Of a stretch of 64,000 bases of DNA, positions 28,040 to 41,836 are shown piece after piece. Numbering within the stretch: the stretch's first letter is position 1; each line of letters begins with the position of its first letter. The notes beneath the pieces are model-generated. The model was not told the DNA's origin, made no database searches, and worked only from the letters and a program-made list of their open reading frames with translations. The stretch is from a virus, in the IMG/VR virus record IMGVR_UViG_3300020596_000011, positions 62,001 through 126,000 of that record; one strand, 5' to 3'. The translations under genes were made by a program, and so were the position numbers.

Positions 28040-29530
28040 TCATTTCTTGCTTTGTTTGGGGAGCGTGTCCGGCTTTTTAACGTCTTTCAATTCGTTTATT
28101 GTTTCATGGTCAGCGTTCTCTAGCGCATTGTTAAACTCGTCGGTCTCATTCTTCGGATCGTAGCTGTAGTGCCCGATTTTTGAAATATTTACACCGTGGT
28201 GATTATTTAAGTGATCGATCACATCATTTGCAGCAGCCCTGTGGGTGCCTGTGACAAGAGACCCATTCCCCATCTCACCATCGATCATGAAAGGCGGGAT
28301 TTTGTTTTCACCTTTTATTTGAGACACGACCATTTGATGCACGTGCGGCCAATCGTGCACGACGTGGATCGGGTTGAAGTTTTGCGGATAATAAGGTTTC
28401 TGTGAGAATTTAGCAATAGTCTGTTTTAAAGCATGCGGTAAGTTGTTTGATTTTATGAGAGGGTTCTTCGGCGGTTTTGGAATTGCAATCTTTTTGGGAG
28501 CTTCAAAATCTGTTCCCGAACTCGATTCATCACGGGGATGCCCAACTTCGATATCTTTGCTGCTCACTTTGAAGTGTGCCTCGGGGTGTGCGACGACGAT
28601 TTCTTCTTCACTTGAATGGACTGGGTTGTGCCCTGGATAAAGTGAATGGCCGCCGGTGTGCAGCACGTCTCTTAAGGGGACGTCCTTTTTCATGATGAGG
28701 TGGTGAGGGTGATCTTCTGAATCGTGCTCCCCCCGCCCTGTAGCGAAACGCGTAGCCATGTCACGACTAAGAGACCAAGAGGACATGTGAGCCGAAGGGA
28801 TTGTTACGGTTTTGTGGCGGTCCACTTTTGAAGCCTTCCCTACAGTGTAGGGGGACATACCGCCTTCGAGGTATTTTTCCTCGTCATGGTCTGTTACACC
28901 TAGTGAATCTTTCACCCGCTTTGCATAGCTTCCACCCACACCTCTATAGACCGTGATGTGCGGCTCGCCGTTAATCATTTTCTTGTTAATGTGGCTGTCG
29001 TTCATAATCGCTTTCTGTGAAGCAATCATGTGGTTAACGAGGTGAGGGGTTTGGTGCTTATGCTCGTCTGAGTGGCCCTTGTCACCTCTATGCGTTTCAA
29101 TGTGTTCAGGCTCCCCCGTGTACATCGCTTTAATAGCCGCAAAATGGCTGGGCTCCACTTTTCTCTCGTATGAGTTCCAGAAGTCCCCAGATTGCTGCTC
29201 ACCTTCCTCGGCGCCTCCACCTTGGTAGTTGGGGTGCGCTAAGATGGCTCCTGTGGAAAATTGCTCGTCAGGCGCGTGGCTCCATGCGTGTCTGAGTTGC
29301 TCTCTTGAGAGGTCCGGGTGTAGGTTGCCCGCTAAATTGTACAGTACATCCGATATTTGATCTTTGGGCGCGTGCTTCAGGTATTTTTCAACGTGACTTG
29401 GGGGAATAGGGTGTTCTTGTGCAGCAAGCATTTGAAAACCGCTGTGGTGTCTCAGTTTGTGTGCCACTGCGATGGCTTTGTCCCAGTCCTGTGTCTGGGC
29501 GTAATGGTCTAAAAGTTGGTAGTCGTTCAT
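28040..29530 (-). CDS. ADP-ribosyltransferase (R-S-E class) with C-terminal ParB/Srx-like domain
   Basis: A 496-residue protein. Residues 185-325 show the three marks of arginine-type mono-ADP-ribosyltransferases: Arg196 in ITVYRGVGG, the Ser block SSWSLSRD near 250-257 followed by a TRFATG helix, and the ExE motif at 308-310 in SSEEEIVV. It would transfer ADP-ribose from NAD to a host target, as Alt and Mod enzymes of T4 do. Residues 385-440 (PPFMIDGE, then LVTGTHRAAANDVI) resemble a ParB/sulfiredoxin-type fold. The first 100 residues are helical and unassigned. It overlaps the Nudix-GNAT gene by 4 bases (ATGA). Confidence 0.75.
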   Translation of the reverse strand: MNDYQLLDHYAQTQDWDKAIAVAHKLRHHSGFQMLAAQEHPIPPSHVEKYLKHAPKDQISDVLYNLAGNLHPDLSREQLRHAWSHAPDEQFSTGAILAHPNYQGGGAEEGEQQSGDFWNSYERKVEPSHFAAIKAMYTGEPEHIETHRGDKGHSDEHKHQTPHLVNHMIASQKAIMNDSHINKKMINGEPHITVYRGVGGSYAKRVKDSLGVTDHDEEKYLEGGMSPYTVGKASKVDRHKTVTIPSAHMSSWSLSRDMATRFATGRGEHDSEDHPHHLIMKKDVPLRDVLHTGGHSLYPGHNPVHSSEEEIVVAHPEAHFKVSSKDIEVGHPRDESSSGTDFEAPKKIAIPKPPKNPLIKSNNLPHALKQTIAKFSQKPYYPQNFNPIHVVHDWPHVHQMVVSQIKGENKIPPFMIDGEMGNGSLVTGTHRAAANDVIDHLNNHHGVNISKIGHYSYDPKNETDEFNNALENADHETINELKDVKKPDTLPKQSKK

Positions 29531-31932
29531 TTGGCACCCCTGCGCCCAATCGCATGCGCAACTTCCCGAGCTTCATCCCAGTCCACGGTCACTTCGTTGT
29601 CTGATTTTTTTAGAGAAGGCCCCTTTTGCCTAAACTGCCTAAACTTCCAGAGGTGTTCGGCATCGTGGCTCGTAGAACCTGCCTCTAATGGAACTCTGAA
29701 ATGTTCCTCTGCATAGTCGTACATTGCCGACGCAACCCCTTTACGCTGGTGCTGAGGAAACACCTCTGTCTCGTAAGACATAATGTGGTCGGTGGGCTTT
29801 TTAGAAAAAATAGGCACGCCCTCTGCGTCTTCGTTATTGTCCCAATCATGGTAACCTATGCTTGCAAATCCCGCATGGTTTCCTTGCTTATCGTGGGCAT
29901 TAACGTAGATGCCGCCGTGTGGGGAAGTTGTGTGAGAGAGCGTGTAACCCTCTTTTTGCCAATCCCCATTTTCACCTTTGCCCAAAGCAGCGACCCCCAC
30001 TTGCCCAGCACTCTTTTTTATCTCTGGCTGCGGTTCTAGCAGCGCATTCTTTTCAGGAAGTTGTGTAGTTTGGTGTGCGGTTTTCAACGAGCGTAGCACT
30101 GACGCGTATTTTGCAGCGGCATGCAAGACACTCGTCTCGTTTCCAAACTCTAGCTTAGCCATTGAGGAGTTTCTAGCAACACCTCCAACGCCCTTTTGCG
30201 AACTGTGGTCCGAGTGTCTGATTTTTGGATGGTCAAATGGGAAACGTATGTATCTTGAATTCGTTGTCTCTGCCTTTTCTTCCCCGTGAGGAATACCTGA
30301 ATCTTTGAGTTGACTTAAAAAGGCGTCGCATTGCAGGCTGCGTGTCTTCTGAGACGCAATCGCAAAACCTTGTTTTTCAAATTCGTCAGGTTGGAGCCCT
30401 TGGATGTACGCATGAGCGGAAGGAAGATCAGGAAAGCTTTCGGTGACCCCCTTTTTATTAGAAACTTTCACGGGTTTGTTTACGTGCTCCTCGAGCCAAA
30501 TACTACGGGAGACGCCCAAAGGACGGTCCGCCGGTGTGAGCGGAACGTGAGTAATATGCAAAGGCTTACCCAAAAGTGCGTCTTTTTTGTGCGGGTGGCT
30601 GTTCCTCACGGAATAGTAATTTGACATTGCGCGAAGTTTTTGCAAGCCCGTGCCTGCTTTGTTCAAATCTTTCGCCCAAACAATCGGAGGTTTTAGTGGG
30701 TCGCCCTGCACAACTTTTCGCGTTTTCCCGTCCATCGTAGGCTCTGGTAAATCTTTCGCATTTAATTTAGACCAAACCCGTTTCGCTGCGTTTGACGTTT
30801 TGCCGGTATCTGACGCAAGGCCGCCGTAATGATCTGCTAACTTTTGATAAACTTTTTGTCCTAGACCCTTACCCCTGTGAGGCTTGTCTATGAAGGAATG
30901 AGACATATGCATCCCATCGTGGCTTTTGTCGTGAAATTCCGAGTGGTCGACTAAAAATTTCCCAACCGTTTTGTTTTCGTGATGTAATTCCCAGTAGTGT
31001 CTTTTGGAAGTCCCCCGCTCTCCTGGTTCAGTCCAGTTTCTGTGATGGAGTGTATACCCGTTCCCAATTTCATGCATCGTGAGCCCTTGAGCGTCTTCAG
31101 CTTTGTTGAGCTTCTCGCCGTTCATTTTGGGAAACATTTTCAGTATCAGATTGTGTTTTGCAGCGACGTGAAGGTTTTCTAGGATTTCTTTCGGTAAACG
31201 CGCATTCACACTAAACCACTTAAAGCCTAGAGCTTCCTTGTCAGGGTCGTTTTCGTTTGTTATTTTTTGCGGGACTTTCTCTAGTTCAACTAAAAACGCC
31301 TTGACCACTTTGCCGTTAGGTGTTTTGCACCTCAATTTAGCGTCTGTAATTTCAGCTAAGTCTTGTATGCCTGTCTCTTCCCTAAATTCCCTTATTGCGC
31401 CTTTTTCAAAATCTTCGCCGTTTTCGACGTGTCCGCCAGGAAAGGTCCACTTTTTATTGTCGTTTCTTTTCATCATGAGAAGCTTATTATCCGCTTTCAC
31501 TGCAAGACACGCCACGCGGTTACTTTCCGATTTCCACAGGCGGGTAGACTTCTTGACAGGCTCCGTCGAGTAATCCTCAATTTCGCTTTGATGGACACGT
31601 TCAGGGTGACCGCCTAAAGTGTAGAAATTACCGCCGCCTTCTTGGAGACTTTTTCCATTGTCTACGATTTGAAGCACTGGATACCACAAGCCCTTGTACT
31701 TCGCTGTGTGCCCTTTGGGAGCCTTGTTTGCATTTGCTTTAGCTCGTGCAATTGCGTCTGCAAGGCTTTTTGCAAGTGCCGGATAAGACTTTGTTAACTG
31801 CGTGGCAGTGCTCATTGCGCTTTTTGCGAGACGGCTATCGCCGAGCTTAAGAGCCTCCTCTGCAATTTTGAGGGCTTCGCTAAAAGCTTTTAAAGCGTTT
31901 TGTTGAATTTGGGTAAGTGGTTGTTTTTGCAT
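29527..31932 (-). CDS. Nudix hydrolase fused to two GNAT acetyltransferase domains
   Basis: An 801-residue multidomain protein. Residues 1-70 are helical. Residues 138-265 form a Nudix domain with the full box: GGHVENGEDFEKG followed by REFREETGI. GNAT domain 1 (about 285-395) has the acetyl-CoA loop RGKGLG near 353, and GNAT domain 2 (about 655-765) has QRKGVA near 729. The middle is unassigned. Start at the ATG at 31932 with GAGGGG before it. A sigma-70-like promoter lies at 31961. It opens an operon with the ADP-ribosyltransferase and thyX. Nudix enzymes can cleave NAD, ADP-ribose or RNA caps; GNATs modify proteins or small molecules. This combination suggests a host-takeover role. Confidence 0.8.
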   Translation of the reverse strand: MQKQPLTQIQQNALKAFSEALKIAEEALKLGDSRLAKSAMSTATQLTKSYPALAKSLADAIARAKANANKAPKGHTAKYKGLWYPVLQIVDNGKSLQEGGGNFYTLGGHPERVHQSEIEDYSTEPVKKSTRLWKSESNRVACLAVKADNKLLMMKRNDNKKWTFPGGHVENGEDFEKGAIREFREETGIQDLAEITDAKLRCKTPNGKVVKAFLVELEKVPQKITNENDPDKEALGFKWFSVNARLPKEILENLHVAAKHNLILKMFPKMNGEKLNKAEDAQGLTMHEIGNGYTLHHRNWTEPGERGTSKRHYWELHHENKTVGKFLVDHSEFHDKSHDGMHMSHSFIDKPHRGKGLGQKVYQKLADHYGGLASDTGKTSNAAKRVWSKLNAKDLPEPTMDGKTRKVVQGDPLKPPIVWAKDLNKAGTGLQKLRAMSNYYSVRNSHPHKKDALLGKPLHITHVPLTPADRPLGVSRSIWLEEHVNKPVKVSNKKGVTESFPDLPSAHAYIQGLQPDEFEKQGFAIASQKTRSLQCDAFLSQLKDSGIPHGEEKAETTNSRYIRFPFDHPKIRHSDHSSQKGVGGVARNSSMAKLEFGNETSVLHAAAKYASVLRSLKTAHQTTQLPEKNALLEPQPEIKKSAGQVGVAALGKGENGDWQKEGYTLSHTTSPHGGIYVNAHDKQGNHAGFASIGYHDWDNNEDAEGVPIFSKKPTDHIMSYETEVFPQHQRKGVASAMYDYAEEHFRVPLEAGSTSHDAEHLWKFRQFRQKGPSLKKSDNEVTVDWDEAREVAHAIGRRGAK

Positions 31933-31960
31933 AGGCCCCTCAAAAAGGTGTATAATCAAC

Positions 31961-31989
31961 ATTTTATCGCAACAGGTCGTAAAATACAA
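31961..31989 (-). promoter_or_regulatory. Sigma-70-like promoter
   Basis: Minus strand: TTGTAT, 17 bases, TAAAAT, 29 bases before the ATG at 31932. It overlaps the divergent GTAAAAT site. Confidence 0.6.
31979..31985 (+). promoter_or_regulatory. GTAAAAT-class (late) promoter
   Basis: GTAAAAT 33 bases before the fibre ATG at 32019. Confidence 0.55.
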
Positions 31990-32018
31990 CTGACAAACTA
32001 AGCTTGAGGGGCAAAACA

Positions 32019-34397
32019 ATGGCCGGAACTATTAGTCACGCATCGCTCGCGTCACTTGGGTCTTTACATAACGCACGCGTCGATCTGGTCTCAGGTGCTC
32101 CCGCTGGGTCGCCTCTTTACATTGGCCAAACTGCGTGGGACCAAGTCAACTCCCGCTTTTACATAGCGGTCGGTACCAATCCCGGAGACTGGGTGACTAC
32201 TTCTATACCCGACGCGGTCTCCGTAGCTGACACCGCAACGGTTAACCTAACCCTTTCGAGCGGTTTATTATCGGCGGACGTCATAGAGGCAGCACTTTCG
32301 CTGCTCTCGACGCAGATCAGCGACTTTACGGCTGCGGTTACCACTAACAGTGACGTCGCGCAGAACACCGCCAAGCGTCACGAGAGCTTGACCATTCCTG
32401 CGTCTCACACCCCGACTAGTATTGTCAACGGGTTAGAGCTTAATTTCATCAACCAAACTTTAAAGCTTTCTCAAAACCTTTCGACCGCAGGTTCTCCCAT
32501 TTTTCAGGGCGCTACTCTCTCTACCCTGAGTACAGGTTTACTCCATGCAAACTCTTCGGGTGTTTTGTCCTCCTCTTTAGGAGTAAATGCGGATATTTCA
32601 GCTTCCGCTGCAATTGCAGGGACTAAGATTGCGCCCAACTTTGGATCTCAGACCGTACAAACCTCGGGACCCATTTTAGGGCAGAACTTTAACATCCAAG
32701 CGGGACAGACAGTCGTTACGCTTTTCCCAGACGCATTAGCCATTCAAATCGGTCAGTCAGCCACCCCCAAGGTTATTCAAATTGGTGGACCAAACGACAT
32801 TGTGCAGATTCAGGGCAGCGCAATTATTAACCAAACCACAAACACATCGTCGAGAGACTCGACCGTGGTGATCAACCAGGGCGGCCTTGCGGGGTCAAGC
32901 GGGCAGGCAGGGCTTTACATTGAAGAAGCTGCGGTTGCTCTACTCCCAGCCACTACGAGCAATTGGCAGTCCGCCAATATTGTCAGAATGGCGATGGCTT
33001 CTACAGGAGCTATCACCGTAGGTAGCTTGGTAAATGTGCTAGGATTTAGCAACGCCCAAAACAACGGGACTTTTCCTGTGACGTCCGTCTCAGCAAACGT
33101 CTTCATTGAGATTGACAATGCTCTGAGAACCGACGCTGCTTTAGATGAAGCCAGTGCGTCTGCCACCGTGACCAACCCAGATTCAGCTAAAGGCTACGCC
33201 CGCATCTCGGCTGATAGAGCCTCTTGGGAATTCCAACCTTCTGGAGTTTCCGGACAGTTCATTTTTACCCCTGGCGCTTCTACTTTTACGTTTAACCAAG
33301 GCGTAAACTCCGCAGACGCCGTGTCTTTTTCTTCTCTGGCTCTCACAGGCGCGGGTACGGCTCTCTCTGTTACCAACAACTCGAGTCTGCTAGGCGACGT
33401 TGTGCTCGGGGTCGATAACACTAAAACGCTAGTCGTAAACTCGACAATTGCTTCCAATCTGTCTTTGGGCACGGGCTACAATATTACGCTATCTAACACG
33501 GGTCGGCTCGACGCACCTTTGGATCTCAATCTAGGCACCGTGAACGCCACGGTCGTAAATTTAGGGAGCGCTGGTACGGCTGTCACTCTGGCAAGTTTGA
33601 CGGACGGTGTAGTGCTGTCTAGCAGCGGGGGTGTTCTTTCTTCTGGGCAAATCGTAAACACTAACGTATCTAACTTAGCAGCAATAGCTTACTCAAAGCT
33701 TGCTCTTTCTAACTCTCTAGTCAATGCAGATATTAATGCTTCAGCAGCTATCGCTTACTCTAAGCTTGCTCTTTCCAACTCTCTAGTCAATGCAGATATT
33801 AATGCTTCAGCAGCTATCGCTTACTCTAAGCTTGCTCTTTCCAACTCTCTAGTAAATGCGGACGTTGCTCCGAGTGCAGCTATTGCTTACTCCAAGCTTG
33901 CTTTAACAAACTCTCTAGTCAATGCGGATATTGATGCTTCAGCAGCAATAGCTTACTCAAAGCTTGCTCTTTCCAACTCTCTAGTCAATGCAGATATTAA
34001 TGCTTCAGCGGCTATAGCCGGAACAAAGATTGCACCTGACTTTGGCGCACAAACGGTAACCACGACAGGTCTTACTCAAAGTGGCTCGTCGCGCATAACG
34101 GGCGCCGTGTACAGGTCCGTGGTTGCCACGCGGACGGCAAACTACTCTATCGCCGCAAACGACTACGTTGTGAAGACGGATAGTACAAGCGGAACCTTTA
34201 CGGTGACGCTGCCGAGTGCCGTCATAGAGGAAGGACGAGTTGTGTTTTTGAAGGACGTGTCAGATTCTTGGGGTGTCGCACCTATTTCGATTACAGCTAC
34301 CGCGGGACTAGTCGGTGGACTTTCAACGTTTGTAGGAGACGCGGACAGGCAGTCGCTTCAGTTCATTAGTGACGGTGCGAATTGGCTTATTCTGTGA
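32019..34397 (+). CDS. Tail fibre with 22-residue repeats (792 residues)
   Basis: Start at the ATG at 32019, GAGGGG upstream. The N-terminal 60 residues (SGAPAGSPLYIGQTAWD) are a common fibre-base module. Residues 545-675 are about five and a half 22-residue repeats (NADINASAAIAYSKLALSNS), a unit widespread in phage fibres. The C-terminal 100 residues resemble a fibre-tip beta domain (RTANYSIAANDYVVKTDSTS). It overlaps the small minus-strand gene at 34387 by 11 bases. Confidence 0.85.
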   Translation: MAGTISHASLASLGSLHNARVDLVSGAPAGSPLYIGQTAWDQVNSRFYIAVGTNPGDWVTTSIPDAVSVADTATVNLTLSSGLLSADVIEAALSLLSTQISDFTAAVTTNSDVAQNTAKRHESLTIPASHTPTSIVNGLELNFINQTLKLSQNLSTAGSPIFQGATLSTLSTGLLHANSSGVLSSSLGVNADISASAAIAGTKIAPNFGSQTVQTSGPILGQNFNIQAGQTVVTLFPDALAIQIGQSATPKVIQIGGPNDIVQIQGSAIINQTTNTSSRDSTVVINQGGLAGSSGQAGLYIEEAAVALLPATTSNWQSANIVRMAMASTGAITVGSLVNVLGFSNAQNNGTFPVTSVSANVFIEIDNALRTDAALDEASASATVTNPDSAKGYARISADRASWEFQPSGVSGQFIFTPGASTFTFNQGVNSADAVSFSSLALTGAGTALSVTNNSSLLGDVVLGVDNTKTLVVNSTIASNLSLGTGYNITLSNTGRLDAPLDLNLGTVNATVVNLGSAGTAVTLASLTDGVVLSSSGGVLSSGQIVNTNVSNLAAIAYSKLALSNSLVNADINASAAIAYSKLALSNSLVNADINASAAIAYSKLALSNSLVNADVAPSAAIAYSKLALTNSLVNADIDASAAIAYSKLALSNSLVNADINASAAIAGTKIAPDFGAQTVTTTGLTQSGSSRITGAVYRSVVATRTANYSIAANDYVVKTDSTSGTFTVTLPSAVIEEGRVVFLKDVSDSWGVAPISITATAGLVGGLSTFVGDADRQSLQFISDGANWLIL
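33658..34030 (+). repeat. 66-bp tandem repeats in fibre gene
   Basis: About 5.5 units of 66 bp; TCAATGCAGATATT recurs at 33721 and 33787. Two adjacent units are almost identical. Confidence 0.92.
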
Positions 34398-34560: not shown

Positions 34561-34764
34561 CTAAAGAATTGGGTGGTTAGAAATCGTTTGTACCTTGGGG
34601 CTATTGCACTTTTTGCAGTAGAAATTACCAGCACTCTCAAAAGACCCTGAACATGTGTGACACTTTCGCACCTTAATCAAGATTAAGGGCAGTCCTACCA
34701 TAGCACGCGCTTGGTTTTGCTGTTCAAGATGCTTTTTTTCACGCTGTAACATTACTTTAATCAT
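34561..34764 (-). CDS. Small zinc-ribbon protein (67 residues)
   Basis: AGGAG precedes the ATG at 34764. A basic helical N-terminus is followed by two CxxC pairs (CHTC and CKKC), forming one zinc ribbon. It may bind nucleic acid or a host protein. Promoter at 34829-34855. Confidence 0.75.
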   Translation of the reverse strand: MIKVMLQREKKHLEQQNQARAMVGLPLILIKVRKCHTCSGSFESAGNFYCKKCNSPKVQTISNHPIL

Positions 34765-34828
34765 ACAAAAACTCCTAAATAAATAATAAAGCAGAGAGAG
34801 GAATTTGGCAAGCCTTTCTCGTTTTAAC

Positions 34829-34855
34829 CTATCGGCTAGGCGGTCACGGACTTGA
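34829..34855 (-). promoter_or_regulatory. Sigma-28-like promoter
   Basis: Minus strand: TCAAGTCC, 11 bases, GCCGATAG. Drives the zinc-ribbon gene and the small gene after it. Back to back with the GTAAAAT site at 34857. Confidence 0.65.
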
Positions 34856-34856
34856 G

Positions 34857-34863
34857 GTAAAAT
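34857..34863 (+). promoter_or_regulatory. GTAAAAT-class (late) promoter
   Basis: GTAAAAT whose expected start point (about 34870) falls at the first base of the folded leader. Confidence 0.55.
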
Positions 34864-34870
34864 TTAACTA

Positions 34871-35035
34871 GAACCTGTCCTCCCTGCTTTTGCAGAGTCG
34901 CGCAGATTCTGAAAAGTACTTGCCCATAGAGCAGGGAAAAGTAGGAGCTATACGCTCTGAACAGTAGGGACGGGTTTACAAAAACCTAAACAGAATAACC
35001 GTTAAACTTTTAGTTTAACAATATTGAGGTGTTAA
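34871..35035 (+). ncRNA. Folded leader RNA candidate before fibre gene
   Basis: About 165 bases between a late-type promoter and the TTG at 35036. A closing helix pairs 34872-34881 with 34967-34976 (10 pairs, two G-U). Inside it, 34881-34888 pairs with 34930-34937 (8 pairs) and encloses a 7-pair hairpin (34893-34899 with 34905-34911). A 5-pair hairpin lies at 34944-34958. After the closed domain, 35001-35007 pairs perfectly with 35013-35019, just before the ribosome site. No known riboswitch or ribozyme was recognised. It may be a regulatory leader or a processed small RNA. Confidence 0.55.
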
Positions 35036-36304
35036 TTGTCATATCAAGGACGGAAACCCGCGCTTCTCTCGTTACGTACAGGTGAGCTTGTGCTACCAAA
35101 AGCTGCGGATATCTCGCTGGCTACAGGTACGTCAAACAATTTAAATATCCCCGCGTCTACCAGTAACTCGTACATCCGGTTTACACTCACTGGCGAATCC
35201 GTGCTCACCGGTGTCGTGGCTCCTACAGCGCCTTACGCAAGCGGTAAGCTGTACGTGTTTACCAACGCGGGCGTCGGTTTGACAATCACTTTGAACAACG
35301 AAGATATCAACTCAAACGCTGGTAACCGCTTTATCACCGGGACAGGAAATGACCTCACTATTGCTGAAGGTGCTTCTGTCTTTGCAATCTACGACGACGG
35401 CGCATCGCGCTGGCGTATCGTGGGCGGCTCCGGCTCCGGTTCTGGCTCAGGTACTTTCAAAAACTACTATTCTGTTTGGTTTGACTCGACCAAAAATATT
35501 CCGAGCACAAGCAACGGTACCGTGTCCGCTGCGGGTAACCGCACTGCAACTGACGTTCAGTGGGCTTCGACGAACACTTCGGACATCAGCGTAATACGCT
35601 CAGCAATCACGCCGCTTCGGGGAAGGTACTCATACATCTTTCAGGGTACTACGGCAAACGCAGCGGGAACTACATTCGTTGAATCGCCTACCTTTACATT
35701 AGACAATGTAGACCGAGCGACCTCAACTCTCTTACAGCCGATGTACATATCGTTTGAGTACAATGGTGTTGGCGCTGATGGAGATAACGATCTTATCTTA
35801 GTCAGATACAACTCCGCTGGTACGTTCGGATCTGTTCAAACTATTTTTACTGCCGCTGGGCAAAGTGCCACAGCAACGCCCGGCGCTCGAATCTTGTCAG
35901 CGGGTCCTCGGTTTTTTGGGTATGTTCCTGCGGGGATTACTGCAAACGTGGGCGATAAATTCGCTGTGCGGTTTAGAAACCTTGCGGCGGCTTCAGTCGG
36001 CTTAAGAATTACAGGCTTCTACACGGGGCCTAACGCCGACATCGGCTCTACTTCGCAACGGTTTGTCGGTGATAAAGAATTTGCCGACCGGTTGGTTGCA
36101 CGGGAAGGAACAACAGTTCCACAGCAACTCGATATCGGCTCTACGACCACAATACTCGCAGGAGAAACAAGAATCGTCGGGCGCTTGGACATAGCTTCTG
36201 GGACAACTATTAACCTTGCGGCGGCTGACAGCTATCTCGTAACTGCCGGACCGATTACAGGACCTGGGACTTTAAGCGGACCGGGCGTTATCATAAGCGT
36301 TTAA
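35036..36304 (+). CDS. Tail fibre/spike with carbohydrate-binding-like module (422 residues)
   Basis: TTG start with GAGGTG upstream; no ATG or GTG suits. Residues 1-135 form a beta-rich base ending in a Gly/Ser linker (GGSGSGSGSG). Residues 140-330 resemble the jelly-roll module found in many phage fibres (NYYSVWFDSTKN, then TPLRGRYSYIF and YISFEYNG), which also occurs in the protein at 39341. The tail repeats short beta strands. It likely binds surface glycans. Confidence 0.75.
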   Translation: MSYQGRKPALLSLRTGELVLPKAADISLATGTSNNLNIPASTSNSYIRFTLTGESVLTGVVAPTAPYASGKLYVFTNAGVGLTITLNNEDINSNAGNRFITGTGNDLTIAEGASVFAIYDDGASRWRIVGGSGSGSGSGTFKNYYSVWFDSTKNIPSTSNGTVSAAGNRTATDVQWASTNTSDISVIRSAITPLRGRYSYIFQGTTANAAGTTFVESPTFTLDNVDRATSTLLQPMYISFEYNGVGADGDNDLILVRYNSAGTFGSVQTIFTAAGQSATATPGARILSAGPRFFGYVPAGITANVGDKFAVRFRNLAAASVGLRITGFYTGPNADIGSTSQRFVGDKEFADRLVAREGTTVPQQLDIGSTTTILAGETRIVGRLDIASGTTINLAAADSYLVTAGPITGPGTLSGPGVIISV

Positions 36305-36322: not shown

Positions 36323-38095
36323 GTGTCTTTTATACCAAACTTAACAAGCTCCCCGTCCCTCGCGGTAGACGGACTTGCGGGTACTTCTGCAAGTGCTCCT
36401 GTAGCCTTCCCAGCCGGATTCACCGGCGTAGGAGCTATACCGTTTGCTGCCGCTGACGCAGCGCTGACCATGACTGTCGCAGTGCATGGGTCTCTAGTGT
36501 CTATGACGCCCACAGCTACAAGAATTATTACTCTAGCTTCAACGGGAGTTGCTACAGGTTTTCCTGTAATGATCATCAATAATAGCGCAACGTTTAGTAT
36601 CACGATCAATGCCTCGGGTGGTACGCAAATCACGGTATGCGGCCCTTCCACTAGTATCAGTCTTTATTCAAACACTGCTGCACCAACGTTAAACACGCAG
36701 TGGAGCATTGCAAACGGCGGCGCGTTTCTGCTTTCAGGTAACAGTGTCGGCGCTGCGATTACGCTTGGAACTAATGACAACTTTGATCTGAATCTCAGAA
36801 CAAATGGAGTTGTCGGACTGACGTTAAGTACTGCGGGCGCTGTTACGATGGGATTCACCCCGTCAACAAACATAACGCACCGAGTAAACGGCAGGGAGCT
36901 TAGACTTATAGGCCCTACTGGCGACCCAGCCTTCTTTCAAACAGACCAAGCAACGAATAACGCAGGTAAAAGGTGGCGCTTCGGGCATACTGGCGGAATC
37001 GCAGGTTTTAACAGTTTCGATTTACAGAACGAAACAGATAACATCATTGCATTTTCGGCTTCGAGCGCAGGCGCTGTTACGATGGGGGCTAGCGCAGCAG
37101 TGGGATTGAAGCACTCGCTGATTGGGAACAACGTGCTTGTCCTTGGAGATGGCGGCACCGTTGACTTTAAAAACAGGGCAGAGACAACAACGTTTATGTC
37201 GATACAGACGACGACCGGCGCTGTTACGATTGGGCCACCGGTCAATCTGAATTACAACGGAACAGCACACAGTATTGCGGGCGGATTGAGAGTTGCTACT
37301 CCGACTTCGCCGAGTACCGACCAAGCTTACTCGTTCAACCTGACAGCTAACTCGCTTGGTGATAATGCAACGCATACTCGCACCAACACGGCAAACGGTG
37401 GTGTAAGATTCATTTTAAATCCCAGAACATCGGACAATGATTCCTGCTTTAATATACAGACAACACCTGCCGGAAGCTCGCTTGCGACAAGTCCCGACAA
37501 AACGGTTTTTGCTGTAACCGCAGCAGGCTCTGTTACGCTGGGGCCTTCTGCTGGTCTCGCGGGCTTTCACCTTATCCGAAACACCTCGACAACGTCGTCA
37601 ACTTTATACCTAAGTAACAGCAGCACTAGTACATCGTCAGATACGCACTACAGTCTGATATGTGAAAAAGGTTCAACAACTGTTTCGACTTCACAGAACT
37701 ACATCTTGTTTCAAGCCAACGCTGGCGCAAGCCTAAACGGCAAAATCAACGGTAACGGCGCTAACAGTGCCGCCTTCGGCTCAACGTCTGATAGCAGAGT
37801 AAAAGAGAACGTAGCTGATATGGAACCAATGCTCGCAAACATGGTTGCACTGAGACCTGTTACGTTTGACTATATCCAAACTGCGTCAACAAGCGCCGGT
37901 GAAGGCGTCGGCTTTATTGCTCAAGAAATGGAAGTAATATTTCCAGACGCAGTGAGCGAAGACGGCAACGGCTTTAAGCAGATTAGCGGTTGGGACAAAA
38001 CAACGGCTCGGCTTGTCAAAGCTCTGCAAGAACTATCAGCTAAAAATGACGCACTAGAAGCTAGACTAGCAACATTAGAAGGAATAACCCTATGA
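36323..38095 (+). CDS. Tail fibre/spike with C-terminal S74 autocleaving chaperone (590 residues)
   Basis: GTG start with AAGGAG. The N-terminus (MSFIPNLTSSPSLAVDG) resembles those of the next two fibres and probably docks to the same virion site. The middle is beta-helix-like with recurring AGAVTMG. The last 110 residues are a peptidase S74 intramolecular chaperone: STSDSRVKENVADM, then LRPVTFDYI, GVGFIAQEME and a C-terminal coiled coil. Such domains trimerise the spike and then cut themselves off. Overlaps the next gene as ATGA. Confidence 0.85.
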   Translation: MSFIPNLTSSPSLAVDGLAGTSASAPVAFPAGFTGVGAIPFAAADAALTMTVAVHGSLVSMTPTATRIITLASTGVATGFPVMIINNSATFSITINASGGTQITVCGPSTSISLYSNTAAPTLNTQWSIANGGAFLLSGNSVGAAITLGTNDNFDLNLRTNGVVGLTLSTAGAVTMGFTPSTNITHRVNGRELRLIGPTGDPAFFQTDQATNNAGKRWRFGHTGGIAGFNSFDLQNETDNIIAFSASSAGAVTMGASAAVGLKHSLIGNNVLVLGDGGTVDFKNRAETTTFMSIQTTTGAVTIGPPVNLNYNGTAHSIAGGLRVATPTSPSTDQAYSFNLTANSLGDNATHTRTNTANGGVRFILNPRTSDNDSCFNIQTTPAGSSLATSPDKTVFAVTAAGSVTLGPSAGLAGFHLIRNTSTTSSTLYLSNSSTSTSSDTHYSLICEKGSTTVSTSQNYILFQANAGASLNGKINGNGANSAAFGSTSDSRVKENVADMEPMLANMVALRPVTFDYIQTASTSAGEGVGFIAQEMEVIFPDAVSEDGNGFKQISGWDKTTARLVKALQELSAKNDALEARLATLEGITL

Positions 38096-39339
38096 GTTTT
38101 ATCCCAGGCGCAAGCAGTACGCCTTCAACATTTCCCGACGGTTTTAGTCTATCTGCTGGTAGCGTAACTAACGCTACGCTGCGATGGTCCTCGCCGACAA
38201 CTGGTCTGTACGAACCAGGAACTAACCAGATCGGCTTTACTAATGCGGGCGTGCAAACATTCTTAATGAGCGCTGCTGGAGCGGTTACGATTGGGCCGAG
38301 CGCTTTTGTGGGGGCGCATGTAATTAATGGCGCTCATTTATCAATACGAAACAGCGGGTCCAACGGAGGTTACATCGAGGGCCAGCAGGCAGGTGTGCCA
38401 CAGTGGTTTATCGGTAAACACCCGTATAATAATTTCACTGGTAACAACGTTGGTATTGGTTCGGTAGTCGCGGGAGTTGGGCTTGAATTTGCGTCTGCAA
38501 ATGTGTTGTGCGGAGCAGTAAGTGCAGCGGGCGCTTGGGCGTTTGGGCCTGCTCCTAGTGCGGGCGCTAACCTTGAGCATATCTTTCAATCGCAGGTACA
38601 AACACAACTTTCAATTAGGTCGTTAACCGGCAATTCGTCAATACTTAATTTTCAGCAGGGAAGTACAAACCGTCTTCAAATTAGGCACAACCCAGGGGTG
38701 AACAGAGCAGAGCTGCTTGTAGGGAACCCTGCGACTCTTGTAGCTGCCGAGATCAGCCCAACAGGAGCTTGGACGCTGGGCGACGGAACCAACAACACCG
38801 CATCGCATGTGTTCAGGGCGAACACAACAAACGAATGGGTTGTCAGAGTTCAAAACTTGTCGAATAGTAACCCTTACGGTCAAGCGATAACATTCACAGC
38901 GGCAGCGCCTAATGACACTACTCGACTGTTTTTTGAATGTGCGGACAATGTTGGGGTAAGGGCAACAATACGGTCGAATGGTGGTATTGCGAACTTTTCA
39001 GCCAATAACGTAAACTTGTCAGATGCGCGGCTGAAAGAAGCTATCGAGCCTGCGCCTTCTTATCTCGCAAAGCTGTTACAAGTTGAAGTCGTTAACTACA
39101 AGTTTAAAGACCAGACCCATGATGATTTCAACTTAGGCGTTATTGCCCAGCAGCTTGACTCGGTTTGTCCTGAACTCGTTGACAAAGATGGCTTTGGTAC
39201 AACGCCCGCAGACGGCATTCCTTTAATGTCTGTATACCAAACCGACCTCCAATACGCGCTCTTAAAAGCACTACAAGAACTATCAGCAAAAGTAGACGCA
39301 CAGGCTGCTGAACTAGAAATATTAAAAGGATTAAACTAA
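38092..39339 (+). CDS. Tail spike with C-terminal S74 autocleaving chaperone (415 residues)
   Basis: Start overlaps the previous stop as ATGA. N-terminus MSFIPGASSTPSTFPDG parallels its neighbours. The body has beta-helix-type repeats, again with AGAVTIG. The S74 domain begins at NLSDARLKEAIEPA and continues through FNLGVIAQQLD to a C-terminal coiled coil. It is a diverged relative of the preceding fibre with a different central part, as expected for alternative receptor-binding proteins. Confidence 0.85.
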   Translation: MSFIPGASSTPSTFPDGFSLSAGSVTNATLRWSSPTTGLYEPGTNQIGFTNAGVQTFLMSAAGAVTIGPSAFVGAHVINGAHLSIRNSGSNGGYIEGQQAGVPQWFIGKHPYNNFTGNNVGIGSVVAGVGLEFASANVLCGAVSAAGAWAFGPAPSAGANLEHIFQSQVQTQLSIRSLTGNSSILNFQQGSTNRLQIRHNPGVNRAELLVGNPATLVAAEISPTGAWTLGDGTNNTASHVFRANTTNEWVVRVQNLSNSNPYGQAITFTAAAPNDTTRLFFECADNVGVRATIRSNGGIANFSANNVNLSDARLKEAIEPAPSYLAKLLQVEVVNYKFKDQTHDDFNLGVIAQQLDSVCPELVDKDGFGTTPADGIPLMSVYQTDLQYALLKALQELSAKVDAQAAELEILKGLN

Positions 39340-39340
39340 A

Positions 39341-41836
39341 ATGGCATTCTTACCAGGAAATACAGCATCCCCGTCGACCGCGACGGACGGCATTGTCGGC
39401 AAGGGTCAGCTCGGCAATAACGAAACAATATCTGCTACTCGTGTACTGACTAACGCGGATAGAAGAATTCAAGTACTGACGCCTTCAGGTGCAATAAGAA
39501 TAGTTCAGCTTCCTACTACAGCCATTGTTGCTGGAGAAGCTTGGGCTATAACATGTGCTGCAAGCTCAGGCTTTGGATTAACTGTTCAAAGTTCAAATGG
39601 AACAACAATCGTCACGCTTAACCCCGGCGAAGCGATGACTTATTCGGCTAATATTGCTACTCCTGTAGCTGCTACAGATTGGAGTTTTTCTGGGGTTGCA
39701 GTAACTGCTACTCTTGCTCAAACTCTTTTAAACAAAGTAGTTTCATCAACCGCCGCAATCACAGGTGCTCTAACATTACCCTCCGGAACAGTGGCTAACC
39801 GCTCTGCTCTAGCTACGGTCGGGATGATTAGGCATAATACCGACGCAAACGAGTTCGAAGGATTTTCGAATGGGACTTGGGCAAGTGTGGGCGGTGGATT
39901 AAACGAGCAACCAGTTAAAAACTACCTTAAGACATTCTCTAATGCCTCTGTAGCTCCTGGGACAGTATCTAACCTTGCTTCAACAACCGCTAACCTTGTT
40001 TCTTTAACTGCGTTTTACACGGGTACAGCGGCTAACGCTTCTGCTGTTACAAGTCCGGCGAATACTGAGCTGAGAGGCTCAACCAACTACCTTACAGCGG
40101 CGCTGACATCTAACCCCACCGGTACATCGTTTGTGCAGTTCCCCGCCTTCGCTTTAGAAGGCGCAGACCTCGGCAAACCCGTCATGCTCAACTTTGATAT
40201 CCTTGGCGTTACTGCTGATGGAAATTGGGATGTAGTCGTAGTCAGGTACAACTCATCGGGTGTTCACCAGAGCATTATATCAGTTGCTGGGAACGCATCC
40301 GCAGCAACTCCTGCAAGTGCTAAACTGCCAACGGGCACGTCAAGATTCAGCGGCTTTTGGGTGCCAGACAGCATTACCCCTTCTGACCTCTACGCTGTGC
40401 GACCGAGAAGTTTGGCAGGCAGTGTTGCAGTGCGATTCGATACGCTTTTCTCAGGGCCGCAAGTGCTGATGCAGACGGGTGCTTTGACCGACCCAATCAT
40501 AACCACAGGCATCACTGTTTCAGGTTTTGGCGCAACTCCAACGGTCGCGAGTGTATATTCCAGAATTGGCCAAAACGCTCACATTCGGACGGTAGTAAAA
40601 GTAACAGCGGCATCAGGTTACGGTAATCATGTTTTCACACTTCCGGCAGAATTAACGCCAGACTTTACCAAGATACCAGGGCAGGAAGGCGGATTCGGCA
40701 CGACCAATGCTTGGGTAGGTGAGGCTAGTATTGTCAATACCTCAACGGGTACACTTTGGAAAGGAAGGGTTCTTCTTAACACCTCAAGACAGATGACGCC
40801 ATACGGGCCGAATGGTCAAGGCGACTGGAACGGAACGGTTCCCGTTGCGCTGTCAACTAACATGTCAATAACTCTTGATGTTATAATCCCAATAGTCGGC
40901 TGGTCGAGTAACGTAACAGCGGGTGATAGGAGTGTCTCAGAGTACGCTAGTAACTCAGGTGTCGGCGGTGTAGCTGCGAATACAATTTACACCACAGGAA
41001 GTGTACAAGGCGCTCTTGGTTCCCAATTTGTTTCAGTCAATAGTGTTACCTCAGGTGGTAATACAAAATACCGGCTTGATTGGGCGACAGCAATTCAGGC
41101 AACGGACACATTTATAATACAGACGACACAAGACTTCGGAGTTACTTTTCAAAATGAAGGCGGCTCAATTTCGTACATCGGACGAGGGCGTCAAGGCGCG
41201 TCAGAATACGGGATGTGGACTGAGCCCATTAACGCAAGCCAAAATTACATAGTCTTCGGTAACCAAGGGCGCATGATATCGAATGCAGGCTACGCAGGCT
41301 CAGGCGCTGCATGGTCTGATATTGCAGGCAGTGCGCAGTACCTATTCAGAGTATTAAAAGTAAGCGGCGGCGCAGTAGTCGGGTTTCCGATTGGCTCACC
41401 GAATATTACTGGGCGCACCGATGGAATTGCGCAGCCTGCGGGGATTGTAGGAGAGGTTATTAATGGAACGAATCTTTCACCTGCGCTTGGCTCATCAGGG
41501 GTAGTGGTTAACCACTATTCGATAGCATTAACAGCGGGGAACTGGCGCATCGAAGGAACTACGGGCTTTAACATAGGTACCACGGCGGTTGTTGGCTCGG
41601 ACAATTATATAGTCGTCTCAGTTTCTTCAACTTCCGCGTCAGAACAAAACCCTCTGGGAATCACAAGTCTGGCACCGGTCGGGTCGGGCGGCGGAAGGCA
41701 GACGGGGACATCTAGGTGCATTTCGATATCAGCATCCGCAACGTGGTTTCTCACGGCAAGGCACGGCATCACGACAGCAGGAAATGCATCGGTTGATTCA
41801 GGAACAGGATTTTTTAGGGCTGTCAGAATCTCATGA
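39341..41836 (+). CDS. Large tail fibre (831 residues)
   Basis: Starts 1 base after the previous stop. N-terminus MAFLPGNTASPSTATDG matches the two upstream fibres. Residues 190-390 hold a jelly-roll module like that in the protein at 35036 (NYLKTFSNASVAPG, then VMLNFDILG and WDVVVVRYNS). Residues 390-540 and the last 130 residues are common fibre-tip folds. No S74 domain, unlike its neighbours. It probably uses the shared docking site with another specificity. Confidence 0.8.
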   Translation: MAFLPGNTASPSTATDGIVGKGQLGNNETISATRVLTNADRRIQVLTPSGAIRIVQLPTTAIVAGEAWAITCAASSGFGLTVQSSNGTTIVTLNPGEAMTYSANIATPVAATDWSFSGVAVTATLAQTLLNKVVSSTAAITGALTLPSGTVANRSALATVGMIRHNTDANEFEGFSNGTWASVGGGLNEQPVKNYLKTFSNASVAPGTVSNLASTTANLVSLTAFYTGTAANASAVTSPANTELRGSTNYLTAALTSNPTGTSFVQFPAFALEGADLGKPVMLNFDILGVTADGNWDVVVVRYNSSGVHQSIISVAGNASAATPASAKLPTGTSRFSGFWVPDSITPSDLYAVRPRSLAGSVAVRFDTLFSGPQVLMQTGALTDPIITTGITVSGFGATPTVASVYSRIGQNAHIRTVVKVTAASGYGNHVFTLPAELTPDFTKIPGQEGGFGTTNAWVGEASIVNTSTGTLWKGRVLLNTSRQMTPYGPNGQGDWNGTVPVALSTNMSITLDVIIPIVGWSSNVTAGDRSVSEYASNSGVGGVAANTIYTTGSVQGALGSQFVSVNSVTSGGNTKYRLDWATAIQATDTFIIQTTQDFGVTFQNEGGSISYIGRGRQGASEYGMWTEPINASQNYIVFGNQGRMISNAGYAGSGAAWSDIAGSAQYLFRVLKVSGGAVVGFPIGSPNITGRTDGIAQPAGIVGEVINGTNLSPALGSSGVVVNHYSIALTAGNWRIEGTTGFNIGTTAVVGSDNYIVVSVSSTSASEQNPLGITSLAPVGSGGGRQTGTSRCISISASATWFLTARHGITTAGNASVDSGTGFFRAVRIS

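What the first reader, a model, noticed from the sequence alone, without database searches (positions are those of the whole stretch)
34857..35040. Multi-helix leader RNA ahead of a fibre gene
The predicted late transcript start coincides with the first base of a 10-pair closing helix (34872-34881 with 34967-34976) that holds an 8-pair stem with a nested 7-pair hairpin and a second 5-pair hairpin. A separate 7-pair hairpin stands before the ribosome site, and the start codon is the weak TTG. Other late leaders here are 20-60 bases. This looks like a cis-regulatory RNA or a small RNA, of no class I recognise.
Basis: partly seen in the sequence, partly recalled or inferred. Interest (0 to 1): 0.7.

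Follow-up and report, generated by a model that had tools for sequence, protein, structure and literature searches.

The report
Structured leader RNA before fibre operon
A phage's tail-fibre messenger RNA appears to begin with a strongly folded 105-base structure that its distant relatives lack; the fold is well above chance and matches no known RNA family, but with no relatives of it found, what it does is still a guess.

Summary
The 107-nt domain folds far better than shuffles on the + strand (z -4.45, 0/1000) and much less so on the - strand (z -2.0). The record has 21 intergenic late-type promoters ([GT]TAAAAT), all on the + strand. Twenty lie 18-66 nt before a start codon; this one lies 173 nt before. 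Its first 110 nt have z -4.7, against -1.8 to +1.5 for the other twenty. The start site is inferred, but falls within 0-3 nt of the closing helix. This is the only late-type promoter ahead of four tandem fibre genes (6.8 kb). Orthologous fibre genes in distant relatives have the same promoter 31-32 nt before the start and no such structure, so the element is lineage-specific. Rfam, a covariance model, DNA patterns and BLAST find no homologue, so covariation cannot be tested. No terminator follows, so a separate small RNA is not supported. Removing it in silico hardly changes Shine-Dalgarno pairing, so a static switch is not supported. Best guess: a 5'-terminal mRNA-protecting leader, ompA/papA-like in mechanism only (about 0.4). 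Rivals: protein-binding leader, put-like antiterminator, inserted repeat.

The parts
34857..34863 (+). late-type promoter -10 element GTAAAAT
   Evidence: One of 21 intergenic [GT]TAAAAT boxes, all on + strand; TAAAAT also stands 31-32 nt before the orthologous fibre genes of G002/G003
34869..34872 (+). inferred transcription start
   Evidence: 6-8 nt after the -10 box; inference, not measured
34871..34977 (+). structured domain closed by P1
   Evidence: z -4.45, 0/1000 shuffles, - strand z -2.03; rank 7 genome-wide
34872..34881 (+). P1 5' strand (pairs with 34967-34976)
   Evidence: pair probability about 0.95 at most 3' ends
34967..34976 (+). P1 3' strand
34882..34889 (+). P2 5' strand (pairs with 34929-34936)
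   Evidence: probability about 0.54, competes with an alternative
34929..34936 (+). P2 3' strand
34893..34911 (+). P3 hairpin, 7 pairs, loop GCGCA
   Evidence: probability 0.98-0.99
34944..34958 (+). P4 hairpin, 5 pairs, loop UAUAC
   Evidence: probability mostly 0.96-0.98
34911..34966 (+). three GAAMAGUA copies at 34911, 34936 and 34959, each just 3' of a helix in the P2 model
   Evidence: 18 of 1000 shuffles have as many copies; suggestive only
35001..35019 (+). P5 hairpin GUUAAACU-UUU-AGUUUAAC, no U-tract after it
35026..35031 (+). Shine-Dalgarno-like GAGGUG
   Evidence: sequence; position relative to TTG
35036..36304 (+). first fibre-like gene, TTG start
   Evidence: N-terminal 135 aa 36-41% identical to proteins of G002/G003, sharing the MSYxG start
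36323..41836 (+). three further fibre genes (36323, 38092, 39341) with gaps of 18, -4 and 1 nt and no late-type promoter between them
   Evidence: Peptidase_S74 in 36323 and 38092

Best explanation
The element is the 5' end of the late tail-fibre operon mRNA. A 105-nt branched domain begins at or within a few bases of the first transcribed nucleotide (inferred), so the transcript has almost no unpaired 5' end. The most likely function (inferred) is to protect this long late messenger from decay that enters at a single-stranded 5' end, as 5'-terminal stem-loops do in E. coli ompA and papA mRNAs. The unpaired GAAMAGUA repeats may add a protein contact. It was gained in this phage lineage, or lost in its known relatives, between a conserved late promoter and the fibre gene.
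For: Strand-specific over-stability at the predicted 5' end. P1 begins within 0-3 nt of the expected start (sequence). It is the only one of 21 late leaders that is long and structured. It heads the only late-type promoter for four tandem fibre genes. The domain hardly alters Shine-Dalgarno accessibility, which suits a 5'-end function better than start-site occlusion. The 5'-terminal-pairing principle is established: the ompA and papA papers in the reference list of PMC3997798 and general knowledge of RppH/RNase E.
Against: No transcript data, and the start site is inferred. No homologues, so no covariation. Relatives express the orthologous gene from a short leader without this domain, so it is dispensable for that kind of gene. 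Host and its RNases are unknown. Nothing shows that this mRNA is long-lived. For some 3' ends the fold of P1 is displaced by coding sequence.
Confidence: 0.4

Rival explanations
1. Translational or protein-binding regulatory leader: a phage or host protein (or a ligand) binds the junction and GAAMAGUA repeats and tunes fibre synthesis.
For: Branched junction, three GAAMAGUA copies after helices, weak TTG start, low Shine-Dalgarno accessibility (second lowest of 21 late genes).
Against: Removing the domain in silico leaves Shine-Dalgarno accessibility about the same (0.21-0.46 with, 0.20-0.42 without). No Rfam riboswitch or leader family. The alternative pairing to the coding region appears only for some 3' ends.
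Confidence: 0.22
2. Inserted small element (MITE-like or other repeat) whose terminal inverted repeats happen to fold; no role in the phage.
For: Absent from relatives at the same promoter-gene junction. TA flanks both ends (TA|GAACC...GGGTT|TA, sequence).
Against: No second copy in G000, nor a match in the three relatives, phages or plasmids. The P1 arms match 8 of 10 at DNA level; the mismatches are G-U pairs on the RNA strand, and the + strand folds far better than the - strand.
Confidence: 0.16
3. put-like antiterminator: the nascent domain binds the elongating polymerase and lets it read through to the end of the 6.8-kb fibre operon.
For: 5'-proximal multi-hairpin element heading a long phage operon; HK022 putL has that placement (PMC9378689).
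Against: Architecture differs (putRNA: about 70 nt, two stem-loops; here a closed multiloop). Other late transcripts here lack such a leader. Terminator-like sites in the operon are no more frequent than in shuffles.
Confidence: 0.12
4. Separate trans-acting small RNA made by processing of the leader.
For: Compact closed domain.
Against: No intrinsic terminator after it (sequence); no homologue.
Confidence: 0.1

Closest known systems
E. coli ompA / papA 5'-terminal stabilising stem-loops
   Same: Stable structure at the (here inferred) extreme 5' end of an mRNA, separate from the ribosome site
   Different: No sequence relation known; here a branched 105-nt domain closed by one helix; stability effect not tested
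HK022 putL/putR antiterminator RNA
   Same: Phage, 5'-proximal, multi-helix, heads a long operon
   Different: put is about 70 nt with two stem-loops on early transcripts (PMC9378689); here one closed branched domain on a late transcript
Phage-borne riboswitches (e.g. glutamine riboswitch of phage Melnitz, PMC9004378)
   Same: Structured RNA in a phage genome
   Different: No Rfam match here; different gene context

Membership tests
5'-terminal mRNA stabiliser (ompA/papA type, a functional kind) | stable helix within a few nt of the 5' end | tested here: inconclusive
   Helix met computationally, but the 5' end is only inferred from the -10 box
5'-terminal mRNA stabiliser (ompA/papA type, a functional kind) | longer mRNA half-life when present | not testable with these tools
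   needs a transcript decay assay
HK022 put RNA | two consecutive stem-loops, about 70 nt | tested here: not met
   Fold is a P1-closed multiloop of 105 nt; put description from PMC9378689
HK022 put RNA | antitermination through RNA polymerase beta' zinc-binding domain | not testable with these tools
   needs a readthrough assay
Any Rfam family (riboswitches, ribozymes, leaders) | covariance-model match | tested here: not met
   none at gathering threshold over the window, none at E<=10 over 34700-35300
Intrinsically terminated small RNA | 3' hairpin followed by a U-tract | tested here: not met
   P1 is followed by UUUACAAAAACC, P5 by AAUAUUG
Retron / diversity-generating element RNA | reverse transcriptase in the genome | tested here: not met
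   no PF00078 match in the 147.9-kb record; the record may be incomplete
MITE | several copies with terminal inverted repeats and target duplication | tested here: not met
   single copy in the record; the host genome is unknown, so copies there cannot be excluded
Conserved structured RNA | covariation across homologues | not testable with these tools
   no homologue found

The most novel reading that the evidence does not exclude
A previously undescribed phage regulatory RNA that acts from the 5' end of one late operon (by binding polymerase or a dedicated protein through its GAAMAGUA repeats) to set tail-fibre output, in a deeply divergent large-phage lineage.
Probability: 0.2. Interest if true: 0.6.

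Novelty: new member of a known kind. Interest (0 to 1): 0.4.

Why it matters
If it is expressed as predicted, it shows that one late operon among 21 late promoters carries its own RNA-level control, and that it is the fibre operon, which bears on host attachment. It would give a handle on how a divergent phage group with no close relatives in the phage record collection sets fibre dosage. As it stands it is an orphan structure with no demonstrated role.

Tried and rejected
Rfam at gathering and at E<=10: nothing. BLASTN of the region in phages and of the element in phages and plasmids: only short chance matches. A covariance model built on the single sequence (two identical copies) and run against the own record and all three distant relatives: only itself. 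Viral-collection patterns on the repeats and on P1: only the same virus plus unrelated tandem repeats or chance P1 matches. The GTDB pattern scan gave 10 hits, about the 9 I estimated for chance, none matching the model. Reverse transcriptase (retron, diversity-generating element): none. Leader switch by pairing of CCUGUCC with GGACGG early in the coding region: seen for some 3' ends only, so not claimed. A 25-codon TTG frame inside the element (34890-34967) has no evident Shine-Dalgarno and is taken as chance.

Full report
Setting. The window is bases 62001-126000 of a 147,886-base virus record. An IMG/VR contig of 160 kb is 100% identical over the 11 kb compared, and over the leader, so it is the same virus. 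The DNA polymerase has no match among about 50,000 phage records. UvsX finds three IMG/VR records at about 45% amino-acid identity and nothing closer apart from the same virus. This is a deeply divergent tailed phage.

Is the structure real? The P1-closed domain 34871-34977 has a folding energy of -43.7 kcal/mol against -28.5 +/- 3.4 for dinucleotide shuffles (z -4.45, none of 1000). Its reverse complement reaches only z -2.0. A scan of the whole record in 110-nt windows, both strands, ranks it seventh of all distinct places; those above it that were examined include a terminator-bearing junction and a repeat array. P1, P3, P4 and P5 are near-certain in the ensemble for most 3' ends; P2 is about even with a competing pairing.

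Is it really a leader, and an unusual one? Boxes [GT]TAAAAT occur 21 times in intergenic stretches within 260 nt of a start codon. All 21 are on the + strand, where the late structural genes lie, so this is very probably the late promoter. Relatives have the same box, including 31-32 nt ahead of the orthologous fibre genes in G002 and G003. Twenty of the 21 lie 18-66 nt from the start codon; this one lies 173 nt away. The first 110 nt after the other twenty give z between -1.75 and +1.48; this one gives -4.74. Gene starts in this survey come from a simple ORF caller, so single distances may be off. The expected start (6-8 nt after the box) falls at 34869-34871 and P1 begins at 34871 or 34872; this coincidence is inferred, not measured.

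What follows it? The gene at 35036 starts with TTG, and the MSYxG start is shared with relatives. It has no Pfam or PHROG match itself; the next genes are tail-fibre-like proteins, two with the S74 chaperone domain. The four genes lie head to tail with gaps of 18, -4 and 1 nt, with no late-type box between them.

Comparative evidence. In L040, L041 and L044 the orthologous gene follows the late promoter by about 30 nt; in L042 and L043 the junction is also short and has no such domain. None holds the element by covariance model. So the domain was gained here or lost there.

Function. Because the domain sits at the inferred 5' end and hardly changes the pairing of the ribosome site, I favour protection of the 5' end of a long late mRNA, by analogy with E. 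coli 5'-terminal stem-loops (references in PMC3997798). The structure, its strand bias and its uniqueness are shown by calculation; transcription from this start and any effect on decay are inferred. A protein-binding leader is the next most likely reading. Three GAAMAGUA copies follow three helices (18 of 1000 shuffles do as well), and the Shine-Dalgarno is among the least accessible of the late genes, but the domain is not what hides it. A put-like antiterminator fits the placement but not the published put architecture (PMC9378689). An inserted repeat remains possible: TA flanks both ends, but no second copy exists in the record and the imperfect positions of P1 are G-U pairs on the RNA strand.

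Verdict. A real, strand-specific, lineage-specific structured leader of no known RNA family, with unproven function. It belongs to the known broad kind of structured mRNA leaders; no closer family membership is claimed.

Noticed in passing
window 34829-34855 (- strand) and about 15 other intergenic sites in the 147.9-kb record: Early-type promoters resemble sigma-28/FliA sites (TMAAGTYT-N11-NSCGATA), mostly 17-36 nt before small genes; 141 sites over threshold versus 79-98 in shuffles, with the best ones mostly intergenic. One runs divergently just upstream of the late promoter. A phage using flagellar-type promoters would hint at host biology.
   Followed up: partly
G000:135820-135935 (outside the window): Intergenic array of repeated GGGGTACCCTGGTATCAAAACC / GTCCGGTTT units that folds strongly on both strands, the most over-stable place in the record.
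   Followed up: no
window 29527-32019 (- strand): One 830-aa frame combines a NUDIX domain and acetyltransferase (GNAT) domains; in relatives the matching parts lie in separate frames.
   Followed up: no
L040, L041 and L044, upstream of the fibre gene: Relatives carry an inverted repeat (AACTTGCA...TTGCAAG in L040 and L041, a weaker form in L044), arms about 30 nt apart, just upstream of the late promoter.
   Followed up: no
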